Below are positions 1 through 64,000 of a stretch of 64,000 nt of DNA, piece by piece (position 1 is the first letter of the stretch; each line of letters begins with the position of its first letter). Where the stretch lies: NCBI RefSeq assembly GCF_020520425.1, contig NC_079491.1, forward strand, positions 29,441,449-29,505,448, read 5' to 3'. A model generated the notes under the pieces. It made no database searches. It worked only from the letters and a program-made list of their open reading frames with translations, and had not been told where the DNA came from. The translations under genes and the position numbers were made by a program. Source of the stretch: Spinacia oleracea. Lineage: Eukaryota; Streptophyta; Magnoliopsida; Caryophyllales; Amaranthaceae.

Positions 1-1053
1 AAACGATGATATTGCCGGAAACGGAAATATGGATCGTATCGGAAATATAAATATTATCCAAGTCGTAGATGTTGCCGGAAACGGAAACATGGTACGTATC
101 GGAAAATATTATCGGAAATGGAAATATTACCAGAATCGGAAATATTGCCGGAAACGGAAATATTGTTAGAATCGGAAATATTATCGGAATCGGAAAATAA
201 TTCCGGAAACGGAAATATTAAATATTTGTTCGAAACGGAAATTGATTCCGGAATCGGAAATATTAAATATTGTTCGTATCGGAAATGAATTCCGGAACCG
301 GGAATTTAATCGGAATCGTATCGTACGAATTAGCATCGGACGAGGCCTGCCGGACGAAGGCCCAGCACGAAGTCGGGCCATCGCCCAGCAAGCCAAACGC
401 GCACCACAAGCCCAGCCAAGGCAGCGCCCAGGCCTACCGCAAGGCAGGCCCAGCGCGCGCCAAGGCCACGGCTGCGTGGGCTGCTGCTCGCACGCACGCG
501 CATGGGCGGCCCTTGTGGCTGCCGTGTGTGTGTGAGTTTGTGTTCATGCATGATTCCTAAAACTATTAGAATTAGTATATGATTAAATTCCTATTCCTAA
601 AAGGATAAATTAATTAATTAGAGTTCTTGTAGGATTCTAAGTTTAATTAATTCGTATCCTACTAGGATTCCAATTCCCTTTCCATAACTCTATAAATACG
701 TGCCTAGGGTCACATATTTTCAGAGATTAATTCAAGTATTCAAAGTGAGTTTTGAGAGAAAAATTCAGCCATATTTCTTACCTAAGAGTGCCGAAAATTC
801 TAGTACCTTAAGGGCGATTCTAGTTGGTCAATCTTAAGGCGGATCCGGACGTGCTGTGGACTATCTACGGAGGGACGACACTTGGAGTCCTAAAGAATTG
901 TTCTTGTTCGGTTCGGGCGCAGCTAGGGAAGGCACGCAACAAAGAGTATGCATCTAAATTATGCTATATGATTATGTGTAAATAATATGTATTCCTGGGT
1001 TAATGGTTGTTTCCGCATGATTTATGTAATATCATATGTATCATAACCTAACA
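1..1053 (+). mobile_element. 5' LTR of the first copia element (partial)
   Basis: This matches the 3' LTR from base 8979 onward. About 320 bases of its left end lie outside the window. The first 300 bases are a chain of CGGAAA/CGGAAT motifs. A GC-rich block follows (about 330-525), then an AT-rich U3/R part with a TATA box. By eye it differs from the 3' LTR at four positions (167, 403, 845, 897) and lacks a 14-bp segment present at about 9457-9470. Confidence 0.95.
691..698 (+). promoter_or_regulatory. TATA box of the 5' LTR
   Basis: TATAAATA lies in the U3/R part of the LTR, with the same sequence at 9683-9690 in the other LTR. Transcription of the element would start shortly downstream, near 720. 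Confidence 0.65.
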
Positions 1054-1054
1054 G

Positions 1055-1070
1055 TGGTATCACGAGCCCC
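1055..1070 (+). other. Primer-binding site (initiator Met tRNA type)
   Basis: TGGTATCACGAGCCCC begins one base after the LTR end. Compared with the usual plant site TGGTATCAGAGCC it has an extra base after TGGTATCA. The copia element at 26693-37866 has the same variant (TGGTATCACGAGCC), so this form is recurrent here and not a random mutation. Confidence 0.8.
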
Positions 1071-2029
1071 TTATTATTTTCATAATCTAAATTGCATGAA
1101 CATGGTTAAATATTACAAATTTGCAAGAATTAAAAGGGGTGATTAATTTTCGTAATTGTTAATTAATTGCAAATTGCGTTTATTTAATTATACGTACGCA
1201 GTTTTTCGGCAGTTTCTTCGTTACTCATCCAAATCGAGTGATTTTTGTGTCAATTCCGCATGTAAAAGGCATTCTAAAATTTTGACAAAAATAGTCTATT
1301 TCTGCCGAACCCAGAATTCTCAAATTCGAAGCCTAACTATGACTTTTCGAAGGTTTTAGTTTTTCGAATGCAAAATTTCGTAAATTTAAGATGTTAAAAT
1401 TAAATATTTGCGATTCTTGTTGATAAATCTTGAATTTTTGATTGACCTACTGTATATGTTTAACAAGTTTGAATGCCTAGCCTTGTTAATTATGCAATCT
1501 AATTTGTAATTATGATTAATTTGTTGAAAATTAGAATAATTTAGAATTAATTTGATTTTCATAATTAATTATAATTTAATTAGATACCTATGATTAAAAA
1601 CCACCATAAAAAATTGTAAATTTATGATAAATTTTAAATTTTTATGACCTAGACTTGAATCCATAATAATCGGAAATCAATTGGATAATAAATTTTCGAT
1701 TTTTTGCCCTAAAATTATGAAATTAATATTATTTATTAATTTGTCATTAATTTTAAATATAAATTTTAATTTTTATGCGATTCGTTCATATAACTTGCAC
1801 GCACAAAGCAATAGACGCTTCGTGTTACCCTTAAGGGGTGTTGTATAGTGCGGGCATACGACGACGAGCAAGGGAGCTCGTCGCCCGTGCGGCACGAATG
1901 CAATGAGCAAGGGCATGGTGCACGAGTACAAGGCAGCAGCCCTGCCTTGTGTCGTGGGCCACGAGCTATGAACAAATGGGCATGGGCGAAAGGCAAGCCA
2001 AGGCAGTCGCGTGTGGGCAGCAAGCGAGC

Positions 2030-2420
2030 TGCGCCACGACGCGCACTGCCTCGCGCAAGCGCGCGCAGCGAGCGCGCAGCGAGCGCTAGCTCGCGTGCCA
2101 CGAGCGCTGCGCCCAGCGTTGAACGCGCGCAATTGCTCGCGCGCTCAGCGAGCGATGGCTCGCGCGCACAAGCGAGCGATGGCTCGCGCGCACAAGCGAG
2201 CGATGGCTCGCGCGCACAGCGAGCAATGGCTCGCGCGCACAGCGAGCGATGGAGCGAGCGCAGCGTGCGCTGGCGAGCGCGCACAGCGAGCGATGGCTCG
2301 CGTGCGTCGAGCGCTGGCGCGCGCACAGCGAGCACCACAGCGTGCGATGGCTTGCGATGGAGATGCAGCAGCTATGCGACGAGCGCATAGGCTGCGCGCA
2401 CATGGCCAGCAATGGCTGTG
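2030..2420. repeat. GC-rich leader block with a 23-24 bp tandem repeat
   Basis: An island of GC-rich sequence in the AT-rich untranslated leader of the copia element. From 2147 a unit of 23-24 bases (AGCGAGCGATGGCTCGCGCG plus CACA) repeats at 2147, 2171, 2195 and 2218. It then continues in degraded form to about 2335. Because the sequence is CG-rich and repetitive, it leaves long open frames on both strands (for example 1766-2338 minus and 1848-2390 plus). These encode Ala/Arg/Ser repeats and are not believable proteins. Confidence 0.85.
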
Positions 2421-4619
2421 TGCGTGCGGCCCATGGGCGTGCAATGCGTAGGGTGTTTGCGTTGCGATTAGATCGTTTTGAATGTTTAATTTGAAATTTT
2501 TCAGTTTACGTAATTTTAATTAATTTTAAAATTAATAATTTAAATTATTTTATTGGATTTTAATTTTGAATATTATAATTATAATAAATTTTATTTATTC
2601 TAATTATTTTACTAAAAAAAATTAAAATCATGAATTAATTTAAATACGACTGAAATTAAATTAAACTTTTTGGATTCAATTATAAATTTATATGAGCTTT
2701 AAATTTTAATTAAATTTGTATGTTTCCGGTTAGACTAGAAATACATTTTTATGTTTAAAATTAGTAAAGCATATGAATTTATTGGTTTAAGTGGGAGCCC
2801 TTTTAGTCATAAAACTCTTGATTAGGTCTACAAATCCTTAAGGTTAAAACAACTTGATTAGAATTAATAAGGACTGAATAATTGGTAGATTATTGGTGCC
2901 CTTGATTAATTGCTGCAAATGTTTACGTGATGCATAATGTGTTTTACTAACCAGCTATGTGGGCCATTCATGATAATGAATGGGTGAATGGTATATATAT
3001 ATATATATTGTATATGTACTGTTTTGCAGGTTATGAAGTGACTAGTATGGCCCAAATAGGATAGAAAATATGGTCTGCGTACCATTAATTTGAATGTAAT
3101 TGGTCTAAAGTACCAAAGTTATTTTTCAATTCAAATATGGTCTGCGAACCATCAAATAGTTGTAATTAGTTATAGCTTATCCTATTTGAAGAAAATGGTG
3201 CCTCCCACGGAGATTTTCAAGACGGACTTTGAAGTCAAAGCTTCAAGATGAAGTCGGGCCATACTAGATCACATTTATCTTATGCATGCTTTAAGTTATT
3301 TATTACTTTAAATATGTCTTAATTATGCATATTATTGTGGCTTGATTATGTTGCATGATTAAGGATTTTAGTTCACTTAAAATCTAACCAACATAGTAAG
3401 AGCCTTAAGTTCCAAACTTAAAAATTGAGTTAAAAGGTGCCATGCCAAAATATACACTTGCTTGGATATCCTTTACATCAATCTAGTAATAGTTTTCGCT
3501 CAGCGAGGTGTTACTTATTGGTCCTAAAGGGGCAAGGTACACAAATAATTGTGAGTACATGTTAGTTTTAGTGAAACTCAACTATATAAGTAAGGAGTCC
3601 TTTTATGTCGTGGCAAAATCGATAGGTTTACCTAATAAGTAATTAGACGTACCTATCAACCAAGAGTAGTTTCTAGACTATTAGCAAAAGGCTTTTGCTT
3701 ACCTAAAATGTTTTAGAATTGAGTCGACAAACTGTGCTTAATTCTTCAATGGTTTTAGGGTCTTGGAATCATTTATTCACACCCGCCGGAACAATAAAAT
3801 CGAATAAAATGCTAATAACTTGTTTGAATTGCATGGTTGCTTTAATTTCAAGTTATTATTCATGATAAATATTTAGACTTTGCATGCTTCAATGTATGTT
3901 TTAATTATTGTTTAAAATTAAATATCTTGCACTGCAATAAATCCTTTTAGAAAGGTAACAGTAGATTTCCTCGATTGGTAGTGAATCCAAGAACGATTCA
4001 CGGAAATGAGAGAAAATGAGCAATTTAAAATGTACGTTTCTTTTAGCGACTTTTATGGTTGTTTTCGAACATCAAAGTCGAATGGCAAACCAATTGGTGC
4101 TTGTGAATTCAAAATACACTGTAGTTTTGAGATCATAAAGCATTGAGTTTAATACGCTCAGCTTTACCAATGGTTAACAACCTAATATCTTTGTCCATTT
4201 AATTCTCGAATGAGTCTAGTCCCTAGACATTCGAATAGATCGATGCTTAGAGAACTTTAGAAGCTTCTGGTAAGATCATCTAGTTGAAACTTAATATTCA
4301 ACATAAATTAAATGGTAAGAACCTTGTTGGGGTGACATTGGACATGTCTAACAAAGTATAAAAGTCAACACTAAAGAATTCAATTCTTAAGACTATAAGA
4401 AAGGGTACAAGAAATAGGAAAACGAGGAACAAATGAAAGGAATTTACGATTCCGTTTCTACCTATAAGTTCATGTTTAAAGAGAAGTGACCTAGCAATCA
4501 AACTTCCTTGGTATCATATACCGCTTGAGGTTCTTACTTCGGTAATAACTCAAACAATGGAAGCTAGGATACACTAATGACCTACAAGTGGGAAATGAAG
4601 CATGGAAATGCTACATTAG

Positions 4620-7600
4620 TTGTAGGGTCATCTAGTTTGTTTTAAGTCCTTTCAAAGGCTGGAACTTAATGGCTATTTTGTTCCATAATCAGCATACCTA
4701 AATTTCTGTTTTTCAAACACAGAAAGACTCACATTCAAGAAAAACAAAAACAATGTTTGTTTGTTTATTTGAGTGAAATGGTCAATTACGGGTTGAGTCA
4801 ATATGCTTGATTAAAACAAACAACTCTTTAACAATAAAAACTTTACTAGGTTCAAATCAAACCCTTGATTTGAGTTCCATTAATCTTTGGCATTGTTGCT
4901 TAGACCATATCAACAAGTTAACATTCATAAGCTCTATTTTGATGGACTTTTTGAAAGTTGGTTGATTTCTAGATCAACTTAAGAAAAGCTAGTCTTACTT
5001 GTTGAAAGTAACAAAGAATATGAACTATTGTTAGAACGCCTAGACGATAGAGTTCAAAGCTAAAGAAAGGTTTTATGACTTTATTATTTCACATGGATTT
5101 TAGTGAATATAGGTTTATTTACTCAAATGTGATATAAGTTGAATCTGTTTGGCTAGTTCAAAGATTCAGAAGTATAAAATCCACTTGGCAAGAAATCATA
5201 AAGATCTAGGTTAGATCATGTTGATGATTACTTGAGACCAAATATGATCATCAATGATTGTGTGTTGTAATTTCACAATCTAGCTCCATAAGATATGGCA
5301 TATCTAAGTTGGAATGATCGAAGTCGATTAGTACTTGATTCGATCAATGATGGATCATAAAGACTTTTCCTTTAATTTCTAAAACAAAATGCTCAACTAC
5401 CACCAAACTAAACCAAATTCGTCAAAGCTATTGAAAAGTAATTTCAGAATAACTTTTCATAAAATATATCTAGAGAGTTCCTAAACTCAGTGGGAGCTTA
5501 GTGTTTGTCATTCGACAAACTAAGGCCCAAGTATAGATATATGTTTCATTGTGATTTATTCAATTGAGACACAAGGGTATTGTTTCTACCACGAATTTTT
5601 GAGAACATAATGTTTGGTTGCTCGAAATAATGTCCTTTTGGAGATTCGTTTCCAAAATGACAAGTGGGAGAAAATAGACCTCGAAAGTCTTCGAGGCGAA
5701 CAACAAACATAAACGGACATTCCGGAGGCTTTTCGAAATGCTTCAGAAAATCCGAACTTATTCTTTAAGGACTTTAGAAGTGGCTTTAAAGAATAGACAT
5801 CTCTTAGAAGACTTTACAAGTGCTTCAAGGAGAACAGAATATTCAAAGGACTTTCAAGTGGCTATTGATATTCTATTGTTTGATGTTCTATACCCAAGTA
5901 GGCATAGAGTTCAAGTCACTGAAACTATGCAATTCTTCTATTAGATAGTAAAGAAACCTACAACTTGCAGTCAAACTAAAAGAAGTGACTTGTAAGAAAG
6001 CTATGACGAAACCCAGATTCCCTAAAATGGTTAGAGGCCATATATAGACTATATGTTTAATTGGTTAAAGGCCATAAAACATACTCAATGTGTTGATGAC
6101 AAAATTGAAATTTTGTTGATTTGCAAGAATAGTTTCACACCTATTGGTTGCAAGTTTGTTTTAAGGATAAAAACCATCAAACATGGAATTGTGTTCACAC
6201 ACAAAGCTAGATTAGTTGCTAAAGGTTACAAGCAAATTCATGGCATGGATTGTGTTGAAACCTCATGCAAAATCATAATGCTTAAGTCTATAATTCAAGC
6301 AATGATTGCATATTGGTACATATGGCAATTGGATGACAAAACGTATTCCTCAATCAAATGTTGGAATATAATATGTACATGGTATGTCATAGAATTTGTG
6401 GATCCAAATAAATGCTTGAAAAAGAAAGCTAGCTTATAAAATCTAAGTACAGATTTAAGCAAGCAATTGGGAATTGGAACTATATTTTAAGTGAAGCTAA
6501 TAAGCATTTTAGTTTCATAAAATATACATGATTCTTATAGATATATAAGAAGTTTAGTGGGAGTACTTAAAACTTAATTGGTCCTATGTGTATTACACAC
6601 ATATCTCTCTGTTGTGAAATAACATTCAAATGCTAATGACTTAGATTTGAAATTATTCATCAATGATGGACCAAGGCGAAACTTAGTACATACTGGGTAT
6701 TAAGATCTATTTACAAAGATCTTATGATATTGTTTTGGATTAAGTAATGGCATTTACTAAATCAAACACGAAAGTCTCCATTGGAGATATTCGACCCATG
6801 TGAATAAATCTAAGTAAAGGATGTTTGAACTATGTATAAGCATTTACTAAGTTAAACATCAAAGAGTCTAAATGAGATTCATAACCTATATTATATGTCA
6901 AAGAATTTAGCCGAATTTAGTATCTACTGAAACTAGATAAGCTAAAGTTACATGAATAGAATTCAATTGGGAATTATTCTGCAAAAGAATTTATCATGTA
7001 TGATATAATATGAGGATCGCCAAAAACGTATCGTATGACTTTAGGCATGACGAACATATACCAATCTCTATTGATCTAAGTGAAGATCAACTAGATTGAG
7101 ATCAAGAATACTTATGGTACTTGAAAAGGTACATAGGAATAGTTCTTGATTCAAGGAAATAAAGATATGCTAAATATTGATGCTACACGCATAAACACTG
7201 GCAAAGGATCAAGCAAGACCCTTTGGAGTTAACCATTGATAAGGACGAGCTATAGAGCATCGTGTTTTGAAATGGCAACATGGATTGGAGACCATGAGTT
7301 GTTGCGTGGGAAATTAAAATATTAATTTCTATGTTCTAAGATACAGCTGGAAAGTCTTCCACATGTCTGTGAACTGCTTGGATAAGTAAATCCAAACAAA
7401 GCATCACTAGCAACCTAAACAGTTGAAGTAAAAGTAATTATTGCCTAAGAAGCAATAAAACAGGGTTTTTTAAAGTTCTTCACTGAACTTGGGTAGATCA
7501 CCTATCTGCTGGCTTGATGGTTCTTCATTAAAAAATACGTAGAACCACTCTTGAAGCAAGAAAAACGTCTGCTAACTTAATGGTTCTTCATTGCAAAATG

Positions 7601-7870
7601 AGTAAAACCACCATCGAAGTAAGAAAGACTAGATCACATAATAAACAAACTCGAAAAGATCTTATCATCATATCTCGAAGAACATTCGATGAAAAGGATG
7701 TTAAGATTGGCAAAGCATGATAACTAAACCTATGCAACAAGTGAGAAGCAACACTCACGTTGTAGCACTGGAAATCAAGCGTAGCTTTGAATTCCATGAA
7801 TTGTTTTAGAAGATGGGTTTTGAGGCCCATGGTTATAAAACATTGGGGTTGAACATTTATCATATATGAA
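4620..7870 (+). pseudogene. Decayed copia pol (integrase, reverse transcriptase, RNase H)
   Basis: At 4885-4917 the bases read L-W-H-C-C-L-D-H-I-N-K, the GAG-pre-integrase motif with one Cys/Gly-type position lost. At 6053-6439 an open segment contains GCKFVLRIKT, KARLVAKGYKQ and WQLDDKT, matching the copia RT start. The usual ETFSPV reads ETSCKI, and the frame is lost afterwards, including the YVDD region. At about 7345-7460 there is a damaged SWKSSKQ RNase H segment. Near 7640-7720 is a relic of the conserved pol C-terminus (KDVKIGKA). Stops and frameshifts are everywhere, so no enzyme can be made. Protein homology before 4600 (gag) could not be recognised. Confidence 0.85.
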
Positions 7871-8632
7871 ATGTATTTTCATATTCCATTTAATCTTGGT
7901 TTAGTATTAAATGATGAGTCCCTTCAATTTGACGATATATTCAAGATAGACTGTCAGGACCAGTCCTGTGACTAAGAAATGTCTATCAAGTGAACTTGAA
8001 TGTCAAAGGTTGAAAATGGTCCCTGGTCGGAGTTTTCTATAAAATTGGACGCATAGAAAACGTTAGACGATTAGAATGCAAGATGACTAGTAGTTCTGTT
8101 TCTTGAACTATGTGGACATGGCAATGTCATAATCATTTGCATAGATACTTACTTTGGGAAGACTAGTATCGGACAAGACCTATGAAACTTTACTGTAAGA
8201 GATGAAAATCTGTCATAAGTAAATTTCATTAAAATTATTAGACACTAAATCCTCAGTACCTGAGTGATTTGAGATTACTTGTTTGAGAACTGGTTGCTTT
8301 GACGTTGACCAACCGTCGCACCGTAAAAGGAGGCTATAAAGGCAACGCTCAGGTAATCACCTATCAAACGAAGTCTAATCTCAAGATCGCAAGATTGGGA
8401 TTGTCCTCCCATAAATCGGGATGAGATGCTTAAAAGTTGTACAAGGCCACTCGGAGAGCTAGAAACTGTGAAATGCATGGCCGTGCTCGGATGAATCATA
8501 AGCTATGATTATCTGTTTATTTGATCAGTTGAACTCTGAAACCGAGGAACACCTCTGGACATAATAAGGATGACAACTCTTACCTTATGTTCAAGAGCAA
8601 GCATCGAGCGACAAAGGAATTAGGAAATGCAC

Positions 8633-8659
8633 ACTTGTCCCTAAGGACAAGTGGGAGAC
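8633..8659 (+). other. Hairpin plus polypurine tract before the 3' LTR
   Basis: ACTTGTCC-CTAA-GGACAAGT is a perfect 8-bp stem with a 4-base loop (8633-8652). It runs directly into the purine tract GTGGGAGAC that ends one base before the 3' LTR. The purine tract primes plus-strand DNA synthesis in LTR elements. The hairpin overlapping it is an observation without an assigned role. Confidence 0.75.
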
Positions 8660-10045
8660 TGAAGGAAATAATGCCCTTGGTCCAAGTATGCATTCTATGT
8701 TAAGTCTAATAAATGCGGTTCAGTATTAATTAACAAGTTAATAATTCAGTGAGATCAAGTGAGCTGAATGCCTAGCTAGAGGCCGCTTCAGTTCAAGTGG
8801 AATTAATGATATTAATCCACAGCTTACTCTTGACTGAACCCGTAGGGTCACACAAATAGTACGTAAACGGATCAAGTATTTAATGGCATTAGATACTCCA
8901 TCTATGGATATTCGGAATCGACGGATCTTGGTTTCAGTGGGAGCTGAGATCGTCACAGGCAAGAAATGAATACTCCGGAAACGATGATATTGCCGGAAAC
9001 GGAAATATGGATCGTATCGGAAATATAAATATTATCCAAGTCGTAGATGTTGCCGGAAACGGAAACATGGTACGTATCGGAAAATATTATCGGAAATGGA
9101 AATATTACCAGAATCGGAAATATTGCCGGAAACGGAAATATTGTCAGAATCGGAAATATTATCGGAATCGGAAAATAATTCCGGAAACGGAAATATTAAA
9201 TATTTGTTCGAAACGGAAATTGATTCCGGAATCGGAAATATTAAATATTGTTCGTATCGGAAATGAATTCCGGAACCGGGAATTTAATCGGAATCGTATC
9301 GTACGAATTAGCATCGGACGAGGCCTGCCGGACGAAGGCCCAGCACGAAGTCGGGCCATCGCCCAGCAAGCCAAACGCGCGCCACAAGCCCAGCCAAGGC
9401 AGCGCCCAGGCCTACCGCAAGGCAGGCCCAGCGCGCGCCAAGGCCACGGCTGCGTGGGCCTCGCTGCGTGGGCTGCTGCTCGCACGCACGCGCATGGGCG
9501 GCCCTTGTGGCTGCCGTGTGTGTGTGAGTTTGTGTTCATGCATGATTCCTAAAACTATTAGAATTAGTATATGATTAAATTCCTATTCCTAAAAGGATAA
9601 ATTAATTAATTAGAGTTCTTGTAGGATTCTAAGTTTAATTAATTCGTATCCTACTAGGATTCCAATTCCCTTTCCATAACTCTATAAATACGTGCCTAGG
9701 GTCACATATTTTCAGAGATTAATTCAAGTATTCAAAGTGAGTTTTGAGAGAAAAATTCAGCCATATTTCTTACCTAAGAGTGCCGAAAATTCTAGTACCT
9801 TAAGGGCGATTCTAGTTGGTCAATCTTAAGGCGGATTCGGACGTGCTGTGGACTATCTACGGAGGGACGACACTTGGAGTCCTAAAGACTTGTTCTTGTT
9901 CGGTTCGGGCGCAGCTAGGGAAGGCACGCAACAAAGAGTATGCATCTAAATTATGCTATATGATTATGTGTAAATAATATGTATTCCTGGGTTAATGGTT
10001 GTTTCCGCATGATTTATGTAATATCATATGTATCATAACCTAACA
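8660..10045 (+). mobile_element. 3' LTR of the first copia element (complete, 1386 bp)
   Basis: It starts TGAAGGAAATAATGCC after the purine tract and ends CCTAACA, giving TG...CA termini. It is complete, unlike the 5' copy. The right junction (10045/10046) is with a LINE reverse transcriptase frame on the other strand. Confidence 0.95.
9683..9690 (+). promoter_or_regulatory. TATA box of the 3' LTR
   Basis: TATAAATA in the same position as in the 5' LTR. A transcript started here would read rightward into the LINE remnant and towards the gene at 11700. Confidence 0.55.
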
Positions 10046-11190
10046 CAAAGAACACTAATACGGGGAGTAGTAATGCAAGACATAATTAGACTTATTAACT
10101 GGGAAGGAAATCCAAAGCTACTCAAGGTATCCCGAATAAAGCTCCATTCCAAACTATCGTAAGCCTTAGTTAGATCAAGCTTAAGAGCCATTATTTTCTT
10201 ACCCTTTTTACTTTTATGGAAAACATGAGCCATTTCCTTCACTAAAATTATATTATCCTCAATTCCCCGCCCCGGAATGAAACTGGACTGAAACGGACTA
10301 ATTAACTTACCCAGAATTGGACGGACACGAGTGGTAATAATTTTAGTAATAAGCTTATAAATAGTGTTACATAATCCGATGGGTCTAAAGTCCCGCATAC
10401 TTTCAGGAGCGTCCACCTTTGGAATGAGAGTAATAAATGAACGATTAATATCCGACGGGATGGCCGCAGATAAAAAACAGGAACTACAAAACTTAAATAT
10501 ACTATCTCCGAGCTCAGCCCAGTATCTCTGAAAGAAAATGGGCTGAATGCCATCCGGACCAGGGCTCTTAATTGGGTCCATTAACCTTAAATTATGCCAA
10601 ACTTCATCCTTAGAGATCGGTTTAAGTAAACTCAACCTATCCTCATCAGATAACTTGTTAACATTAGGATATGAAACCCCCAAAACACTTCTAATCAAAG
10701 ACGTTTGGAAAAGAGTATCAAAATAGGAAACATCCATATCTTTAAGCACTTCCCCCTCCGTAACCCAAACACCATCCCCATTTTTAAGAGTTAAAATTTT
10801 CCCCCTACTTTTCCTAACTTTAGCAATAATGTGAAAATATTTGGTATTATAATTCCCGAATTTCCTCCAATTTAATCCGGCCTTTTGAGCCCAAATTAAA
10901 CGTTCTTTCCTAAAAATGCTATTAAGCTGATTAAGCAAATCTCGTTCTAGATTAACCAAAAACCGACTATACGATTTAGATAAAGCCAATTGAATACCGT
11001 TGATACGCGCCAATAACCGTTTTTTTTGCAGTCGTAAGTTACCAAACACATTACTATTCCAACCAACAATGTTTTTTAAAAAACTGTCCCGCCCTCTAAT
11101 GAAATCAAACTCACAGTCAGACCAATTATGCAAAAAGAAATCCTTAAACTGGGGGTGTACTTGTATTAAATTTGTAGTCCAACTTTTAAT
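10046..11190 (-). pseudogene. LINE (L1-type) reverse transcriptase fragment, cut by the LTR element
   Basis: On the minus strand an uninterrupted frame of about 365 residues runs from 11133 down to the LTR junction, and the same frame stays open further upstream. Landmarks in order: NYNTKYFHIIAKVRKSRG (end of the endonuclease-RT linker), KSPGPDGIQPIFFQRYW, FITLIPKVDAPESMRDFRPI, QSSFIPGRGIEDNIILVKE and LKLDLTKAYDSLEW. These are the N-terminal RT blocks of plant L1-type LINEs. The frame stops at ITTPRISVL because the copia 3' LTR begins there. The catalytic FADD block and the rest would lie left of the window. The endonuclease half is absent, so the copy is also 5'-truncated, with an unclear boundary near 11150-11190. 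Confidence 0.88.
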
Positions 11191-11699
11191 GAAAAAGATT
11201 TGGGATGAAAGAGAAATACAAAAATCAAAATGTGAACATTACTTTCCCTTCCTTGATGTGTTTTTTTTCTTTGTACATAATCAAAACTTGGCATATCTTC
11301 CCTCAAAAAAAAAAAAAAGAAAAAAACAAAACACGATTAGGCGATTAGCCCCCAAATCATACATTTCCAATTTCAGTGTTCCATCTCTAGCATAATCAAA
11401 TCCAAAATTCCCGTAAAAGTAAAGGCAAGAGAGGAAAGAAGACGCAGAGAATAAGTTCGATCAGGCGTTCCGAATTGAGATTTGAGGCTGAATCGGTGGA
11501 TTAGATGCTACACATTTCCAGTCCGCACTTGTTCCTCCCACTTTTATTGGTATATTTCTATCTCGGGACTGTTAATTAGGGTTTAGTTACATTTTGCAGA
11601 AAGGATTAGGGTTAGGGTTACTGGGTTATTGCTATAGAATTGTTAATGAAATTGGGTGCATTGGTGTTGAAATAGGTGGTGTAAGAGGAGGTGGTAAAG
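11191..11699 (+). promoter_or_regulatory. Presumed promoter and 5' UTR of the small coiled-coil gene
   Basis: AT-rich with an A-tract at 11307-11330. No clear TATA box was found. A purine-rich stretch at 11410-11450 (AGAGAGGAAAGAAGACGCAGAG) looks like the start of a 5' UTR. The only in-frame ATG that gives a sensible protein is at 11700. Confidence 0.35.
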
Positions 11700-33100: not shown

Positions 33101-33545
33101 ATTTTCCCGCCAAAAGCACAGCTTTGTTGCAGGGGGCATATACTTGTTCGCTGCAACAAGTGTGTAAAATTAGGCAAAAATCAAGACTTGTTGCAGCGTA
33201 CAAAATGATGTACGCTGCAACAGACTGGTTTGTTGCAGCGAACAAAATGATGTACGCTGCAACAGACTGGTTTGTTGCAGCGTACAAATAAAAGCCCGCT
33301 GCAACAAACCAGTCTGTTGCAGCGTACATCATTTTGTACGCTGCAACAAGTCTTGATTTTTGCCTAATTTTACACACTTGTTGCAGCGTACATGCAAATG
33401 TACGCTGCAAAAAAGTACTTTTCGCAGCGTACATTGTACGCTGCAACAAGTCAATACTTGTTGCAGGCCCCCCAGTTGCAGCATACGATGTACGCTGCAA
33501 CAGGGGTCTAAAAGCCCGCTGCAACAAGGGTTTTTTCTACTAGTG
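33101..33545. repeat. Right subterminal repeat block of the CACTA element, with a large palindrome
   Basis: GTTGCAGCGTACA and its reverse complement alternate at least ten times. The stretch from about 33150 to 33388 is one imperfect palindrome centred near 33270. Its left arm contains TAAAATTAGGCAAAAATCAA and its right arm TTGATTTTTGCCTAATTTTA. The DNA could extrude a long cruciform. Confidence 0.88.
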
Positions 33546-36500
33546 AGAATGCCTTGCACGGGGCACTTTTTCAAGTACCTCACCACTCGTAACGCCGCTT
33601 CCCAATGTTCCTCTTTCGGTGACTGCATAAATTGGGATAGAATATGAACAGAATAAGCCAAATCGGGTCTTGTGACTGCCAAATAGATCAAACGCCCAAT
33701 CAGGCGCCTATACTTCTCACCATCTGCAAAATCTGGACCGTCTGCCAATGCTAATTTTTTATTTTGCTCCATCAGAAACTCCGCAGACTTTGCACCCAAC
33801 AACCCAGTTTCAGAAATTATATCCAAAGCATATTTTCTTTGACAAACATAGAACCCCAGACTACTACGAGCAACCTCAAGCCCCAAAAAATACTTCAGAG
33901 CGCCCAGATCCTTCATCTTAAAACATTCACTTAAATATGCTTTAAAACTTTCTAGCGCAAAAGTACTATTGCTTGCAATAATCATGTCATCTACATAAAT
34001 AAGCACATTTAACTACAACGTACCCTTAGAAAGTGTAAACAAGGAGTAGTCCGAGTACGACTGATGAAATCCATAGTGCTTCAGGGCCGTAGACAATTTC
34101 TCGAACCAACACCGAGGTGCCTGTTTCAAGCCATACAAAGATTTTCTCATTCTGCATACCTTGTCCGAATTATGTTTCTGAAATCCAGGTGGTATTTTCA
34201 TATAAATTTCTTCCTCCAAATCTCCATGAAGAAAAGCATTGTGAACATCTATCTGATGCACCTCCCAATTCTTAACACTTGCTACCGCCAGGAAAGTACG
34301 AACTGTAGCCATTTTCGCTACGGGGGCGAAAGTTTCGTTATAATCTAGGCCTTCCTCTTGATGATTGCCTAGACAGACTAGGCGTGCCTTTAAACGCAAC
34401 AGGTTCCCATCTTCGTCCCTCTTCTCAGTGTACACCCATTTACTTCCGAGTGCTTTCTTCCCTTCCGGCAAACTTTCCAATGTCCAAGTACCCTGATCCT
34501 CTAAAGCAGCGATTTCAGCCGCCATTGCATCGCGCCACCCCTCATGTTGCATTGCCTGTTTAAAGGTTTTTGGTGCCTTTTCTTCCTGCAATGCTGCAAT
34601 AAAATTTCTGTGTTTCGACGAAAAACGTTCATAATTAACAAAATAGGTGATAGGATAAGGAGTACCTGAAGACGATGACATTGGTGAATTCTCGGATGAA
34701 CTATATTTTTTCCGGATTGTGTGCGTCATGTAATCCCGCAACCTCGAAGATGGGAACTTCTCTCGATTGCCCCTACCCAATTCCGTACTATTCAAATCCA
34801 TCTCCGTACTACTCGTACCCTCCTCATGTAACGTGGTCTGCTTCTCAACCCCGTTACCACAACAGCACTTTGCAAGCTGATGTCCCTGCACGTTGCTGCC
34901 TGCAGTCCCTCAGCATGCAGCGCCTCACAAGGCTCGCCTCGCCCCTGCGCCTCACGCTGCGCCTCAGTCGCCTCACTTCGCGCCTCAGTCGCCTCGCTCT
35001 GCGCCTCGCCTCGCGCCTCACTCACAGGCAGGCGCTGCGCCTCGCCTCGCTCCTCACTCACTGGCAGACTTGGCTCCCCCTGCAGCACTGCTTCTGCTTC
35101 ACTCACAGGTAGATGGCTAGCAGCAGCAGGACGTGCCACTGTTGTCCCAACTCCCTCATTCCCATCATCTCTCAACACATCCCATTGCTCAAACCCATTT
35201 GCGCCCTCCATAGAGGCATGATCAACCTCCACATTACCATTCGGAACCTCCACAAATGGAAAAATATGCTCACGAAACCTCACATCCCGTGAGACAAAAA
35301 ATTCATGGGTCTCAACATCATACATATTCCACCATTTTTTTCCAAACGGATACCCTACAAAGACACATTTCCGACTACGTGAGGCAAATTTATCTCCCTT
35401 ACTCCGTAGATTATAAGTGTAACACAAGCACCCAAACACACGGATAGTTGCAAACGACGGCACCTTCCCAAACACCATTTTATACGGAGTTTCATTTCCA
35501 AGAATAGGGGTAGGCGTTCGATTAATCAAATAACATGCAGCCATAACACATTCCCCCCAAAACCTTTTAGGCAAATTCCCTTGAAAGCGTAACGCTCTCC
35601 CCACATTCAAAATATGTTGATGTTTTCTTTCAACTCTCCCGTTTTGTTGAGGCGTTCCAACACACGAAGATTCAAACAACATGCCATGCTTAAAGAAATA
35701 TCCTTGCAAACAGTTAAATTCCGTACCATTATCACTCCTAACCACCTTGATTGTTTGATTAAATTGGCACTTTATCAAAGCAACAAAATTAAAAAACATC
35801 AACTCAACTTCAGTTTTATTACGAATCAAATAAATCCACACACTTCTTGAAAAATCATCAACAATTGTTAAAAAATATTTCTCTCCACAAGATGACGGAG
35901 TTTTGTAAGGACCCCATAGATCAATGTGAACTAACTCAAACAATCTACTAGCATGACTATCACTAACAGGAAAACTCTCTCTACATTGCTTTGCACGCGG
36001 ACATACATCGCAAACTTTATTATTCTTTCTACGAGTACTACTCATAGGAGGGAGTAACTGTAATATCTTCTCCGACGGATGCCCCATACGTTGATGCCAC
36101 AAATCAACCACACAACGCACCGCAAGCACCTTCACTCTCGGAACTCCTCGGAAAAAATATAGTCCTTCTTGTCGATCACCCACGCCAATCACCGTCCTCG
36201 TCATATGGTCCTGAATCACACAAATTTTGTTAGTAAATTGAGCTGAACAATTCGATTCGTCACTTAATTGAGTTACAGAAATTAAATTGCAGTTTAATTT
36301 AGGTACAAATAAAACACCGTGAAGAACCAATCTCCCTTCCAATGTCACAGAACCATATTGATTCGAGTTTGCCGCCACACCATCCGGTAACACAACCGAA
36401 CAATCTTGAGACGTAGTAATATTTCTCAAAAGTGAAAGATTTCCCGTCACATGATTCGAAGCACCTGTGTCAACTATCCAGCGTAAGTCTAGATTACCTT

Positions 36501-36947
36501 GCAATTTTGCCTTAGGCTTAGACAAAATATCCATTATTTGCTGCACTTGGTCTTTCGAAACCCCCGCAATACCGTGCAAATCTGTTACAGCAGCTGTTGT
36601 CCCTGCTTTGCTGCCATCCTGCGCTACTACACTGCTGCTCGCATTAGGTGTTGTTACAGCATTGGCACGTGCTGCCACAACTGTGCCGGTATGTCCACGG
36701 CCAGCTTTGCCGCCACGAGAACCTGTTCTGCCACCCCTCCCTGGACCACGACCACCCCGCCGTTTCTCATCCCACCAATCAGGAAACCCAATGAGTTGAT
36801 AACAACTTTCCTCTTCATGATATGGTCCTCACGATTACAGTGAGTACAGAACTTGGCAGACACATCAACAAAATTTGGTCTAGACTTGGTTTCGACTTTA
36901 AACGCCATCACATTCTCCATTCCCTTACTGCCTTTAGCCCGCATATT
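33546..36947 (-). pseudogene. Copia pol (protease, integrase, RT), upstream part of the split pol
   Basis: Reading from right to left: a damaged gag zinc knuckle CTHCNREDHIMKR (about 36845, last Cys replaced) after an in-frame TAG at 36945-36947. Then the protease WIVDTGASNHVTG, GAG-pre-integrase LWHQRMGHPSEK, integrase HIDLWGPY, SDNGTEF and GTPQQNGRVERKH, and [40 protein letters not shown] and LIYVDDMIIASN. Faults seen: frameshifts near 36670 and near 34850, and an in-frame TAG at 34011-34013 just before YVDD. The frame is cut at 33546 by the CACTA element after LKKCPVQGI. The integrase-RT linker (about 34930-35110) is swollen by repeats of Ser-Glu-Ala-Arg/Thr-Glu-Ala type. Confidence 0.93.
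34920..35115 (-). repeat. GC-rich coding repeats in the copia integrase-RT linker
   Basis: Variants of GCCTCGC/GCGCCTC(AG) and of CTCACTCACAGGCAG repeat many times. They encode acidic Ala/Glu-rich repeats (LPVSEARGEAQ and similar, LPVSE three times). GC content contrasts with the surrounding pol. Confidence 0.8.
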
Positions 36948-37634
36948 CTACGTATTAACCACAGTCTGGTAAGCCTCATCAACAGAAGGAAACAGTGTTT
37001 GAGCCAACAATTGGGCTCGAATGGCCTCATAATGATCATCAAGGCCTATTAAAAAATAATGCAGACGATCTTCCTCCCGTATTTCTCCAACCTGCTTTGC
37101 GATATTGCAGGTACACCCCGCACATGTACACCTCGGCACCCTCGCGTACTGTACGTACTCCTTCCATATTTTCGACATTCGTCTGAAATACTCCGTAACA
37201 GCCTCGGTGGTGGCCTGTTTATAGCTACTCAATGCCATTTTAATATGACAAACTCTCGTCCCGGTCACCACGCAAAACCTCTTCCTCAAGTGACACCATA
37301 ATTCGAACGCAATATCATAGTCTTCAATGGAAGACCGTAGAGTCTCGTCAATTTTGTTCGTAATCCATGACACAACCATAGAATTCACAGCGTACCAATG
37401 CTTCATCTTGTTTGAATCAGTAGAAGGCTCGGTAACAGAACCATCCACAAACCCAAATTTAAACTTCGAAATCATTGAACGCCTTACAGCCTTTGCCCAT
37501 TCATCGTAATTAACTGAACCGCGAAGCTTCACCGGCGTTATTATGATGCATGGCCCATCGCCAGAGCCAAGATAATAGTCGAGGTCGACCCGCGGAGGCT
37601 CCTTCGCCGGTGGTGATCCTTCATCGTCTCCCAT
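36948..37634 (-). pseudogene. Copia gag (N-terminal part)
   Basis: 229 codons from ATG at 37634 to a TAG at 36945-36947. It shows the UBN2/Retrofit-type gag pattern: LRGSVNYDEWAKAVRRSM, DIAFELWCHLRKRF, MALSSYKQATTEAVTEYFRR and REEDRLHYFLIGLDDHYEAI. The frame resumes beyond the stop with the zinc-knuckle region, so a single nonsense mutation separates them. Confidence 0.9.
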
Positions 37635-37704
37635 GGTTTACGATTAAACGGCTGCACTCCTCTAAGTTTGTGCGGAAAAAAAAAATTATTCTAGGTTTAA
37701 CCTA

Positions 37705-60168: not shown

Positions 60169-63082
60169 CACCCCCGCAGTCGAAGCGGGAGGTTCACGGA
60201 CGCTTAGACTGTCTCGAAAATCATTAAAGAGTATGCGCGGAAGACCTTTGGTGAAGATGCATGTCAGCAATCTGATAGCGAGACGGGACATGTAAGATAC
60301 GAGCCTCACCCTGAGATACATTTTCACGTACAAAGTGAATGTCCATGTCGATATGTTTAGTGCGTTGGTGTTGCACAGGATTGCCGGAAAGATAAATTGC
60401 ACTAACATTATCACAATAGACCAATGTGGCTTTGCGGATCGGACAGAAGAGTTCCAAAAGAAGGTTACGGATCCAGCAAGATTCAGAGACAACATTGGCG
60501 ACCCCCCTATATTCAGCTTCAGCACTAGAACGGGATAATGTGGGTTGTCGTTTGGAGGACCAGGAGATCAGGTTGTCACCGAGAAAAACACAATAACCGG
60601 AGGTGGATCGTCGAGTGTCAGGACAACCACCCCAGTCTGCATCTGTATAAGATATGAGTGATGCAACATATGATTTGTATTGATGCAAGCCAAAACTGAG
60701 AGTACCTTGAACATAACGCAAAATGCGCTTAAGAGCATTCATGTGCTCTATCTTCGGATCATGCATGTGAAGACAAACCGCATTGGAGATATCCGGTCTG
60801 GTGAATGTGAGATACTGCAAAGCACTGGCAAGGCTACGATAAAATGTAGGATCATCATATGGAGTACCGGCGGTGGAGCTCAGTTTTGAGCCGGTGTCAA
60901 CAGGTGTGGGTGACGATTTGCAGGATGCCATACCTGCCCGTTCAATAATTTCCTCGGCATATTTTGTCTGAGATAGAAATAGACCACCTGCATGGCAGGT
61001 TACTGCAATGCCCAAGAAATAACTGAGAGGACCTAAATCCTTCATAGCAAATTCAGAACTCAGACTACACATAATTGATAGGCGAAGAGAATCAGTTGAG
61101 GCAGTCAGAATTATATCATCAACATATAATAGAAGATAAGCAATATCATTACCACGATGATAAATGAAGAGAGTGTGATCAGATTTGCTGTGAGAAAAGC
61201 CAATAGATGCGACAAAATCTGCAAATCGTTGATACCAGGCTCGGGGAGCTTGTTTGAGACCATATAAAGATTTCTTCAACAAGCAAACATGATCTGGATA
61301 TTTTGGATCACGGAAACCCATGGGCTGATGCATATAAACTGTTTCAGTGAGATTACCATGGAGAAATGCATTTTTGACATCCAACTGATGAATAGACCAA
61401 GAATGTGATAAAGAGATGCTCAACACAGCCCGAATTAGGCGAAGAGAATCAGTTGAGGCAGTCAGAATTATATCATCAACATATAATAGAAGATAAGCAA
61501 TATCATTACCACGATGATAAATGAAGAGAGTGTGATCAGATTTGCTGTGAGAAAAGCCAATAGATGCGACAAAATCTGCAAATCGTTGATACCAGGCTCG
61601 GGGAGCTTGTTTGAGACCATATAAAGATTTCTTCAACAAGCAAACATGATCTGGATATTTTGGATCACGGAAACCCATGGGCTGATGCATATAAACTGTT
61701 TCAGTGAGATTACCATGGAGAAATGCATTTTTGACATCCAACTGATGAATAGACCAAGAATGTGATAAAGAGATGCTCAACACAGCCCGAATAGTTGCCG
61801 GTTTTACAATCGGGCTAAAAGTCTCGAAACAATCAACTCCCACCTGTTGAGATTGTCCATCACCTACAAGTCGAGCTTTATGCCTCTCAAAAGAACCGTC
61901 AGATATCTTTTTATGAAGAAAAATCCATAAAGAACGAATAATATTCACATCAGCAGGACAGGGTACTAATTCCCACGTCTTATCTTCAATTAGAGCAGAA
62001 TATTCATCTAACATTGCCAATTTCCAATTCGGGTCATTTAAAGCACTTACTGGATTTTTTGGTATTGGAGAAATGGAGGGAGGAGTGGTTGTGCTCAAAT
62101 TGAAAAGTCGTTTTGGTTTAAATATACCATGCTGACTCATTGTGCACATCTTTGTGGGTTGTGCTGACTGGGCCGAAGGGAGAGCAGTAGTCGGTTGGTG
62201 GGCCGAGCTAAATGCTGGGACGGGTGATGGGGCAGGAGCAGGAGATTGGTGAGCCAGAGATGGAGGAGTAGTGTGGGCCGTTGGAGAGTGAGAAGAGATT
62301 GGGCCAGGGGTGAATGGGGAAGGGGAGTCACGCTGCAAGATGGCAGCAGAGGGGACAGGCGAGTGGGCCTCCTGAATTTGGGCCACTGGCTGCACATTAG
62401 GGATGGTCTGGTCTAGTTGAGACAAAATATAAGGTGAGGGTGCATCCATGAATTCATATGAGATGGGGGTTGGGTTGTGGATTTTAGAGAATGGGAATTG
62501 GGTCTCTTCAAACAGAACATGGCGGGAAATAAATATTTTCCGAGTTGATAAGTCATAGCATTTGTAACCCCGATGATTCGAAGGATAACCCAAGAAAACG
62601 CACGGTGTGGACCGTGGTTGAAGTTTATTGATGGTGGTGGATGGGAAGAGGGGGTAGCATAAACACCCGAATACACGGAGGTGATTGAAAGTCGGATCTT
62701 TTTGAAAGAGAATTTGAGTCGGTGACTTATACCCCAGAACTTTTGTAGGAAGAATGTTAATAAGATATGTTGCCATTTGAAGAGCATGGTGCCAGAAAGA
62801 GGGGGGCATGGAAGAGTGAGCAAGAAGAGTCCGAACAATGTTGTTAATGGACTTTATTTTTCGCTCAAATTTTCCATTTTGTGGCGAAGTATGAGGGCAC
62901 AAAAAACGAAATTGCATACCATTTTGGTCACAAAGTTTATGGGAAGGTGCGTTGTCAAATTCTCGCCCGTTATCACATTGAAATTTTTTGATATTTCTTT
63001 CGAACTGAGTGGTGACATAGGCATGGAATTTTTGAAAAATCGAAAGTACTTGTGATTTTTTGGAGATGGCAAAATTCCACAA
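60169..63082 (-). pseudogene. Copia pol: integrase end, duplicated reverse transcriptase, RNase H
   Basis: A very long minus-strand frame (952 codons, 63082-60224) still open. Integrase: CDNGREFDN, SPQNGKFERKIKSINN. A Pro-rich linker. [60 protein letters not shown] and LLYVDDIILTAS. Then 119 residues of this RT, including YVDD, appear a second time in frame. RNase H follows: [31 protein letters not shown]. Near 60255 an insertion of about 4 bases shifts the frame, so the normal C-terminus (IFTKGLPRILFNDF) continues in another frame to about 60166. An in-frame TAA upstream (about 63083) separates it from the first part of integrase. Confidence 0.93.
61081..61794 (-). repeat. Exact 357-bp tandem duplication within reverse transcriptase
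   Basis: Bases 61081-61437 and 61438-61794 are identical as far as I can read. Being 119 codons, the duplication keeps the frame and doubles the segment from RAVLSISLSHSWSIHQLDV to YVDDIILTASTDSLRL. Confidence 0.95.
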
Positions 63083-64000
63083 ATAATTCGATTAATTATC
63101 CAAGAATAAGACATAATAGCGGTGATCAGATGAACTTATAATGGGAGAAGTCCATAAATCACTGTGCACAATTTCAAATGGCAAGAAAGTAAATGACATA
63201 ATATAGAATTTTGAAATGGTAGTTTCATGTGTTTCCCAAGTGGACACGATGGACAAAAAAAATTGCGGTCCTTATTACATTCAATAAAATTGTTGCTACG
63301 GAGAGAGTTTAAAACTGATTCCCAGGGATGCCCTAAACGGCTATGCCATAAACTAAAAGATAAAGCAGTAAAAGCTGAAGGAGAATTGGCCCGATTTTTG
63401 GTAATAGGATAGAGTTCGCCCGAGCTTTCACATCTCATTAGAGGCTTCCCCGTCCGTAATTCCTTCACAGAAAACCCAAAAGGATCAAACTCAATAGAAC
63501 AAGCATTATCTGTAGTAAATTTTCAAACAGAAACAAGATTCTTAATGAGTTTGGGAGCATCCAATACATTTTTTAGAGTTAAGGGGGGGTTAGGTCTTGT
63601 GAGGGTCGTGCTTCCATAACCAAGAATTGGGATTGAGTGGCCATTTCCGACAACAATTTCTCGATTAGTGCTCAAATTGAAATAAGACGTGAGAGTACCT
63701 GGATTTGCCGTCATATGGGAGGTAGCCCCGGTGTCCATGTACCAATTATCATCCGGTGGTGTGAGGGAGAGTGTGTGCATTGCCTCCTCGATGTCAGTAG
63801 GTTCATAACCCGAAGTAGGGGGAGCAGGAGCATGACAGGCTTGGGGTGGACGTGCACCCAAGATTCCTGGTTGCTTGGGATTTGGTGCACGTGGCTGCCA
63901 TGTTGAGGGATAAGGGCATGGTGGAGTTGCCCATGGCTGCGGTGACCAAGCTCCCCATGGTGTGAATTGCCAGCAGGCTGGCCAAGGTTGTGCTTGTGGT
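63083..64000 (-). pseudogene. Copia gag tail, protease and GAG-pre-integrase
   Basis: Reading from 64000 leftwards one frame gives a Pro/Trp/Ala-rich gag end, then PPDDNWYMDTGATSHMTAN (protease catalytic DTG at about 63735), then LKNVLDAPKLIKNLVSV to a stop near 63520. The next segment (63468-63136) has SLWHSRLGHPWESVLN and CPSCPLGKHMKLPF, the zinc-binding integrase N-terminus. After that a frameshift precedes the integrase core. So pol is broken in at least three places. Confidence 0.88.

What the first reader, a model, noticed from the sequence alone, without database searches (positions are those of the whole stretch)
1..10045. Near-identical LTRs around a ruined pol: an LTR element that moved in trans
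Over the 1053 bases compared I see only about four substitutions and one 14-bp indel between the LTRs, so the insertion is young. Yet the internal pol is riddled with stops and frameshifts and has lost motifs such as ETFSP and YVDD. Decay after insertion cannot explain that. The copy most likely descends from a non-autonomous lineage whose RNA is mobilised by a partner's proteins.
Basis: partly seen in the sequence, partly recalled or inferred. Interest (0 to 1): 0.7.

Follow-up and report, generated by a model that had tools for sequence, protein, structure and literature searches.

The report
Dead retrotransposon spreading with borrowed proteins
In what is probably the spinach genome, a jumping element whose protein genes are long dead keeps making fresh copies, apparently by using the proteins of an intact relative with which it shares nearly identical ends; such freeloading families are already known from other plants, and this is an extreme example.

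Summary
The LTRs differ by 3 transitions, 1 transversion and one 14-bp indel. A CAAAG duplication flanks the element, which splits a LINE frame that is open when the flanks are joined.

In 36 copies compared, each of 16 in-frame stops of the window's pol recurs in 27 to 36. Seven of 7 full dead copies have near-identical LTRs (4 to 11 differences); 6 of 7 have matching duplications. A partner exists: 73 of 96 scored pol hits lie in open frames of 1324 to 1360 codons. Five such copies share PPT and 3' region with the window; two frame-broken partner copies share LTRs and leader too.

Outside the core, 7 dead and 2 partner copies show 1 fixed difference in about 5 kb and 25 shared polymorphisms; inside, detectable patches match at 30-44% of residues. 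So the ends are probably refreshed by recombination between co-packaged RNAs. Wheat Angela is the closest described case. Movement in trans is inferred, not shown.

The parts
1..1053 (+). 5' LTR, window part (the first 319 bases lie upstream of the window; full length 1372 bp)
1055..1069 (+). primer-binding-site-like TGGTATCACGAGCCC one base after the LTR; found in 9 of 9 full copies searched (7 dead, 2 partner type), one with a one-base change
   Evidence: match to initiator-Met tRNA is recalled, not tested
1054..3755 (+). non-coding leader, about 2.7 kb, shared with the partner at 92-99.7% per 100 bp (lowest in the minisatellite and in the last 100 bp)
2102..2308 (+). GC-rich repeats of about 23 bp inside the leader, variable between copies
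3756..7930 (+). dead pol core; similarity to the partner falls away within about 200 bp at each side
5088..5709 (+). integrase and SH3-like relics, frames 3 then 1, 8 in-frame stops
6095..6722 (+). reverse transcriptase relic, frames 2, 1, 3, 8 in-frame stops
7931..8648 (+). 3' non-coding region shared with the partner at 97.8-100% per 100 bp
8649..8659 (+). polypurine tract region AAGTGGGAGAC, identical in 7 of 7 partner-type copies read
8660..10045 (+). 3' LTR, 1386 bp, TG...CA
10046..10050 (+). target-site duplication CAAAG (other copy just upstream of the 5' LTR, outside the window)
10051..11238 (-). host site: part of a LINE reverse transcriptase frame, 606 codons open when both flanks are joined

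Best explanation
A non-autonomous Ty1/copia family with many copies. Its pol died long before the present insertions. Its RNA carries the partner's promoter, leader, PBS and PPT and (inferred) is packaged, reverse transcribed and integrated by the Gag and Pol of the intact partner family. Because both RNAs would share particles, template switching in the shared ends keeps LTRs, leader and 3' region in one common pool, while the dead core, too different to recombine, drifts neutrally. Shown: same lesions in many young copies, a partner with the same ends, neutral drift of the core, exchange of ends. Inferred: packaging in trans and RNA-level template switching.
For: Shared lesions: each of 16 stops is present in 27-36 of 36 copies, 8 of them in all 36. 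Young copies: 4-11 LTR differences in 7 of 7 dead copies, matching 5-bp duplications in 6 of 7. Partner: open frames of 1324-1360 codons in 73 of 96 scored hits; the same pol in two copies with gag, integrase and RT domains and the same ends. Neutral core: segregating sites at codon positions 69/56/60, p 0.49, against 10/8/19 in partner RT. Exchange: dead-partner distance equals dead-dead distance in the LTR (0.0125 v 0.0126) and is close in leader (0.0220 v 0.0201) and 3' region (0.0126 v 0.0103); 1 fixed difference; 25 of 82 partner polymorphisms shared, 20 of them outside CpG/CHG against about 2 expected by coincidence of position. Leader distances do not follow core distances (r -0.11).
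Against: No RNA, particle or extrachromosomal DNA data. LTR and 3'-region distances do correlate with core distances (r 0.73, p 0.0025; r 0.56, p 0.04). In part of the 3' region (36 dead, 7 partner-type copies) only 2 of 36 dead copies have a partner copy at least as near as the nearest dead copy, and 5 of 16 shared polymorphisms are only modestly above the roughly 2 expected (16 x 61 / 443). So exchange is not free everywhere. The two partner copies used for LTR and leader are themselves frame-broken. In one of seven dead copies (L024) the 3' LTR breaks off after about 1135 bases and no duplication could be read. The 36 copies were picked by likeness to the window, not at random.
Confidence: 0.87

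Rival explanations
1. Fossil capture: an old, immobile, decayed copia body was joined once by recombination to the partner's ends, and that chimera then amplified. Trans movement is recent, not ancient.
For: Most of the 16 stops are in nearly all copies and so predate their common ancestor: decay before amplification was not watched in progress. The core-to-partner boundary is sharp.
Against: One founder carries one haplotype, yet leader and LTR share 24 polymorphisms with the partner. The dead-dead core differs by 0.035 but ends by 0.010-0.020, so the ends look younger than the core. [quoted passage not shown]
Confidence: 0.22
2. Ends are homogenised by gene conversion between chromosomal copies rather than by template switching before insertion.
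For: Many similar copies seem to exist (first-look candidates, of which only 40 each were scored: 3764 for the LTR, 4051 for the core). The short form of the 14-bp indel also occurs in 6 of 34 other LTRs.
Against: Within the copy the two LTRs differ by 4 bases, between 5' LTRs of different copies by about 1.3%, so copies are not being homogenised to each other after insertion. Three of 4 differences are private. The indel lies in a 10-bp direct repeat and can recur by slippage (sequence).
Confidence: 0.12
3. Pol decayed after insertion and the LTRs only look young because of LTR-LTR conversion inside the element.
Against: Lesions are shared by most or all of 36 copies. The copy has only 14 private substitutions in 3928 core sites, which at 1.3e-8 is at most about 0.27 My. 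The LINE frame around it is still open.
Confidence: 0.01
4. Ends are alike only because of strong purifying selection on cis signals, without exchange.
For: Ends carry promoter, PBS, PPT and probably packaging signals.
Against: Selection would lower variation within groups too; here within-group and between-group distances are about equal at 1-2% and polymorphisms are shared.
Confidence: 0.04

Closest known systems
Non-autonomous sub-families of wheat RLC_Angela (PMC9744471; passages, section 2.6 read in full)
   Same: Copia; similar length to the autonomous form; degenerated coding region with many stops and frameshifts; LTR tree conflicts with the interior tree
   Different: There the two forms are over 85% identical at DNA level; here the coding core matches the partner at 30-44% of residues in the detectable patches, while the ends are about 98-99% alike
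Dasheng and RIRE2 in rice; SNRE and LTR swapping in soybean (only titles in reference lists and a mention seen; the papers are not held)
   Same: Non-autonomous LTR family with a named partner; exchange of LTRs (recalled)
   Different: As recalled, Dasheng has no coding remains; here copia pol relics remain
Onsen recombination in Arabidopsis (PMC5668417; abstract and passages)
   Same: Direct evidence for frequent recombination between copia RNAs, taken by its authors to be co-packaged, with old copies re-entering
   Different: Experimental and within one small family; here inferred from genome copies
Non-autonomous pararetroviruses in grasses (PMC5491270; abstract)
   Same: Defective and autonomous forms keep common non-coding regions through region-specific recombination
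   Different: Pararetroviruses, not LTR elements

Membership tests
Ty1/copia LTR retrotransposon | integrase lies before reverse transcriptase | tested here: met
   Relics in order INT 5088-5709, RT 6095-6722; partner frames rve then RVT_2
Ty1/copia LTR retrotransposon | TG...CA LTRs and 5-bp target duplication | tested here: met
   for the window copy; 6 of 7 full dead copies have matching duplications; L014's 5' LTR begins TA instead of TG
Ty1/copia LTR retrotransposon | PBS complementary to a tRNA | tested here: inconclusive
   TGGTATCACGAGCC follows the LTR; one base longer than the initiator-Met site that I recall; no tRNA was compared
Angela lineage of copia | RT groups with Angela references in a tree | not tested
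   No labelled references on hand; inferred only because Angela is given as more than 94% of copia elements in Spinacia (PMC7840529, passages)
Non-autonomous LTR family with an autonomous partner | many copies share the same coding lesions | tested here: met
   16 stops, each in 27-36 of 36 copies
Non-autonomous LTR family with an autonomous partner | intact family with the same LTR ends, PBS and PPT | tested here: met
   PPT, LTR start and 3' region read in 5 open-frame copies; whole 5' LTR and PBS only in two frame-broken partner copies
Non-autonomous LTR family with an autonomous partner | RNA packaged and copied by partner proteins | not testable with these tools
   Needs RNA, particle or extrachromosomal DNA data
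LARD (large retrotransposon derivative) | interior without coding remains (definition recalled) | tested here: not met
   RVT_2 relic at E 1.5e-7; INT and RT relics by tblastn

The most novel reading that the evidence does not exclude
The family is one recombining pool of ends with exchangeable interiors: a dead pol body, gag type 1 plus pol, and gag type 2 plus the same pol. The dead body is an ancient lineage that has moved in trans for perhaps ten or more million years, kept young only at its ends by exchange with each new partner.
Probability: 0.4. Interest if true: 0.65.

Novelty: new member of a known kind. Interest (0 to 1): 0.5.

Why it matters
It is a clear natural case of a mobile element that lost its proteins and apparently still spreads. 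Because the dead core evolves neutrally while the ends are exchanged with the partner, each copy holds a clock and a recombination record. That makes it possible to measure how often co-packaged plant retrotransposon RNAs recombine and how long a parasite lineage lasts.

Tried and rejected
Decay after insertion: rejected by shared stops. LTR conversion inside the copy: not supported. Copy-number comparison of dead and partner forms from first-look candidates (4051 against 190): rejected, because the search skips very common words. Codon-position test on the two frame-broken partner copies alone (4/3/3): uninformative. Age of pol death from dead-to-partner distance (JC 0.63, 0.57, 0.91 at codon positions 1, 2, 3): too rough and biased to conserved patches; an order of magnitude only. 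Viral contigs: 0 matches to one LTR pattern. No intermediate relatives of the dead core could be sought, because only the best 40 matches of a DNA search are scored.
Full report
WHAT IS THERE. The window is C5:29441449-29505448 of an assembly of 894,210,420 bases in 242 contigs. The lengths of C1 to C6 add up to about 879 Mb. A published spinach assembly has about 894.3 Mb, in 307 contigs (PMC8668906, passages), so the host is most likely spinach; this is an inference. The element begins 319 bases upstream of the window and ends at 10045. Its LTRs are 1372 and 1386 bp and differ by 3 transitions, 1 transversion and one 14-bp indel. A CAAAG duplication flanks it. With both flanks joined and one duplication removed, a LINE reverse transcriptase frame of 606 codons is open across the site. 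So this is one clean, recent insertion, about 0.11 My old at 1.3e-8; that rate was used for spinach in PMC6337768 (passages).

IS THE POL REALLY RUINED. With pieces of two other copia elements of the window as queries, only an RT patch was detectable. With the partner's frames as queries, INT and RT relics appear in frames 3, 1, 2, 1 and 3 with 16 in-frame stops; I dropped two further stops that fell in an out-of-frame part of a query. No gag relic was found inside the dead cores at E 1e-3.

SAME LESIONS IN OTHER COPIES. A 1001-base piece of the dead core gave 4051 first-look candidates, and the 40 that were scored are 98-100% identical. I compared 36 copies: the window, 29 of the other 39 scored hits, and 6 found through the LTR. 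Each of the 16 stops is a stop in 27 to 36 of 36; 8 are in all 36. Frame steps between landmarks are kept by 25, 19, 35 and 34 of 36. Segregating sites in the relics fall evenly on codon positions (69, 56, 60; p 0.49): the core drifts neutrally. In partner RT (8 copies) they fall 10, 8 and 19. The 29 were chosen by closeness to the window's core, so they are not a random sample.

THESE COPIES ARE YOUNG. LTR differences in the full dead copies: window 4, L010 6, L012 11, L014 6, L016 7, L022 7, L024 6 over the 1136 bases read, that is 0.11 to 0.31 My. Target duplications match in 6 of 7; in L024 the 3' LTR breaks off and none could be read. The partner copy L020 is of like age (8 in 1387, matching duplication); L019 shows 10 in the 824 bases read. 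Copies were found by LTR likeness to the window, which favours young ones.

THE PARTNER. Two copies found by the LTR search, L019 and L020, have the same ends but long open frames (944 and 442; 833 and 439 codons) with zinc knuckle, Pol_BBD, gag_pre-integrs, rve, SH3 and RVT_2 domains; the copia gag model is found in L020 only, and the zinc knuckle of L019 is below Pfam's cut-off. Each has a break in its frame. A search with the 439-residue RT piece of L020 gave 96 scored hits; the 95 others are listed at 100% over 438 residues, and 73 of 96 lie in frames of 1324-1360 codons. Five such open-frame copies share the PPT and LTR start and are 98.7 to 99.3% identical to the window over 700 bases of 3' region. 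Of 39 non-self hits to the 3' region, the first 20 were read: 13 have the dead core, 6 the partner pol, 1 neither.

ENDS SHARED, CORE NOT. Per 100 bp, dead-partner identity in the leader is about the same as dead-dead identity (mostly 0.96-0.997, lower in the minisatellite), then falls below 0.5 between about 3700 and 3900. It recovers between about 7750 and 7950. Over LTR, leader and 3' region (4967 columns, those with a gap set aside) 7 dead and 2 partner copies show 1 fixed difference; 25 of 82 partner polymorphisms also segregate among dead copies. Outside CpG and CHG contexts 20 are shared where about 2 coincidences of position are expected. Splitting the nine copies into all 36 possible pairs against the rest, the partner pair ranks 20th, 6th and 6th in separation for LTR, leader and 3' region. 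Against free exchange: LTR and 3'-region distances follow core distances (r 0.73 and 0.56), though leader distances do not (r -0.11); and in 443 columns of the 3' region, with 36 dead and 7 partner-type copies, there are 0 fixed differences and 5 of 16 partner polymorphisms are shared (about 2 expected by position), but only 2 of 36 dead copies have a partner copy at least as near as the nearest dead one.

MECHANISM. The simplest reading: the LTR promoter makes RNA from dead copies; shared leader, PBS and PPT let partner Gag and Pol package, copy and insert it; shared particles allow template switching, which keeps the ends common. Such recombination was shown for Onsen (PMC5668417, abstract and passages). 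The core was already dead and diverged before the sampled copies split: mean dead-dead core difference is 0.035 among the 7 full copies, dead-partner coding difference is 0.40-0.53 per codon position. At 1.3e-8 that would be tens of millions of years on the dead branch, but reverse transcription errors and unknown pre-death divergence make this a loose figure.

KNOWN OR NEW. Wheat Angela has the same kind of partnership, with incongruent LTR and interior trees (PMC9744471, section 2.6 read). Searches for this family in spinach listed papers on spinach repeats; in the passages I saw of PMC6337768 and PMC7840529 Angela is the main copia lineage and no dead-pol family is described. I did not read these papers whole. 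I file it as a new member of a known kind, at the extreme end for decay of the core.

Noticed in passing
L019, L020, L099-L102: Partner copies carry two gags only about 30% identical, one in L019 and two copies with 1340- and 1342-codon frames, the other in L020 and two copies with 1353-codon frames, with the same pol: a gag cassette exchange.
   Followed up: partly
window 61079-61792 (-): A copia frame (60224-63091) holds an exact in-frame tandem duplication of 357 bp of its reverse transcriptase.
   Followed up: partly
window 33329-37637 (-): Another copia element with long open gag and pol frames in several pieces.
   Followed up: no
window 2102-2308: GC-rich repeats of about 23 bp in an otherwise AT-rich leader, varying between copies.
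   Followed up: no
window 1055-1069: The PBS-like site has one extra base compared with the usual plant initiator-Met PBS (recalled), in dead and partner copies alike.
   Followed up: no
L002: A solo LTR of the family with duplication AAAAA.
   Followed up: no
LTR around window 471 and 9449: The 14-bp indel sits in a 10-bp direct repeat, and the short form recurs in 6 of 34 other LTRs, so it should not be counted as an age signal.
   Followed up: yes
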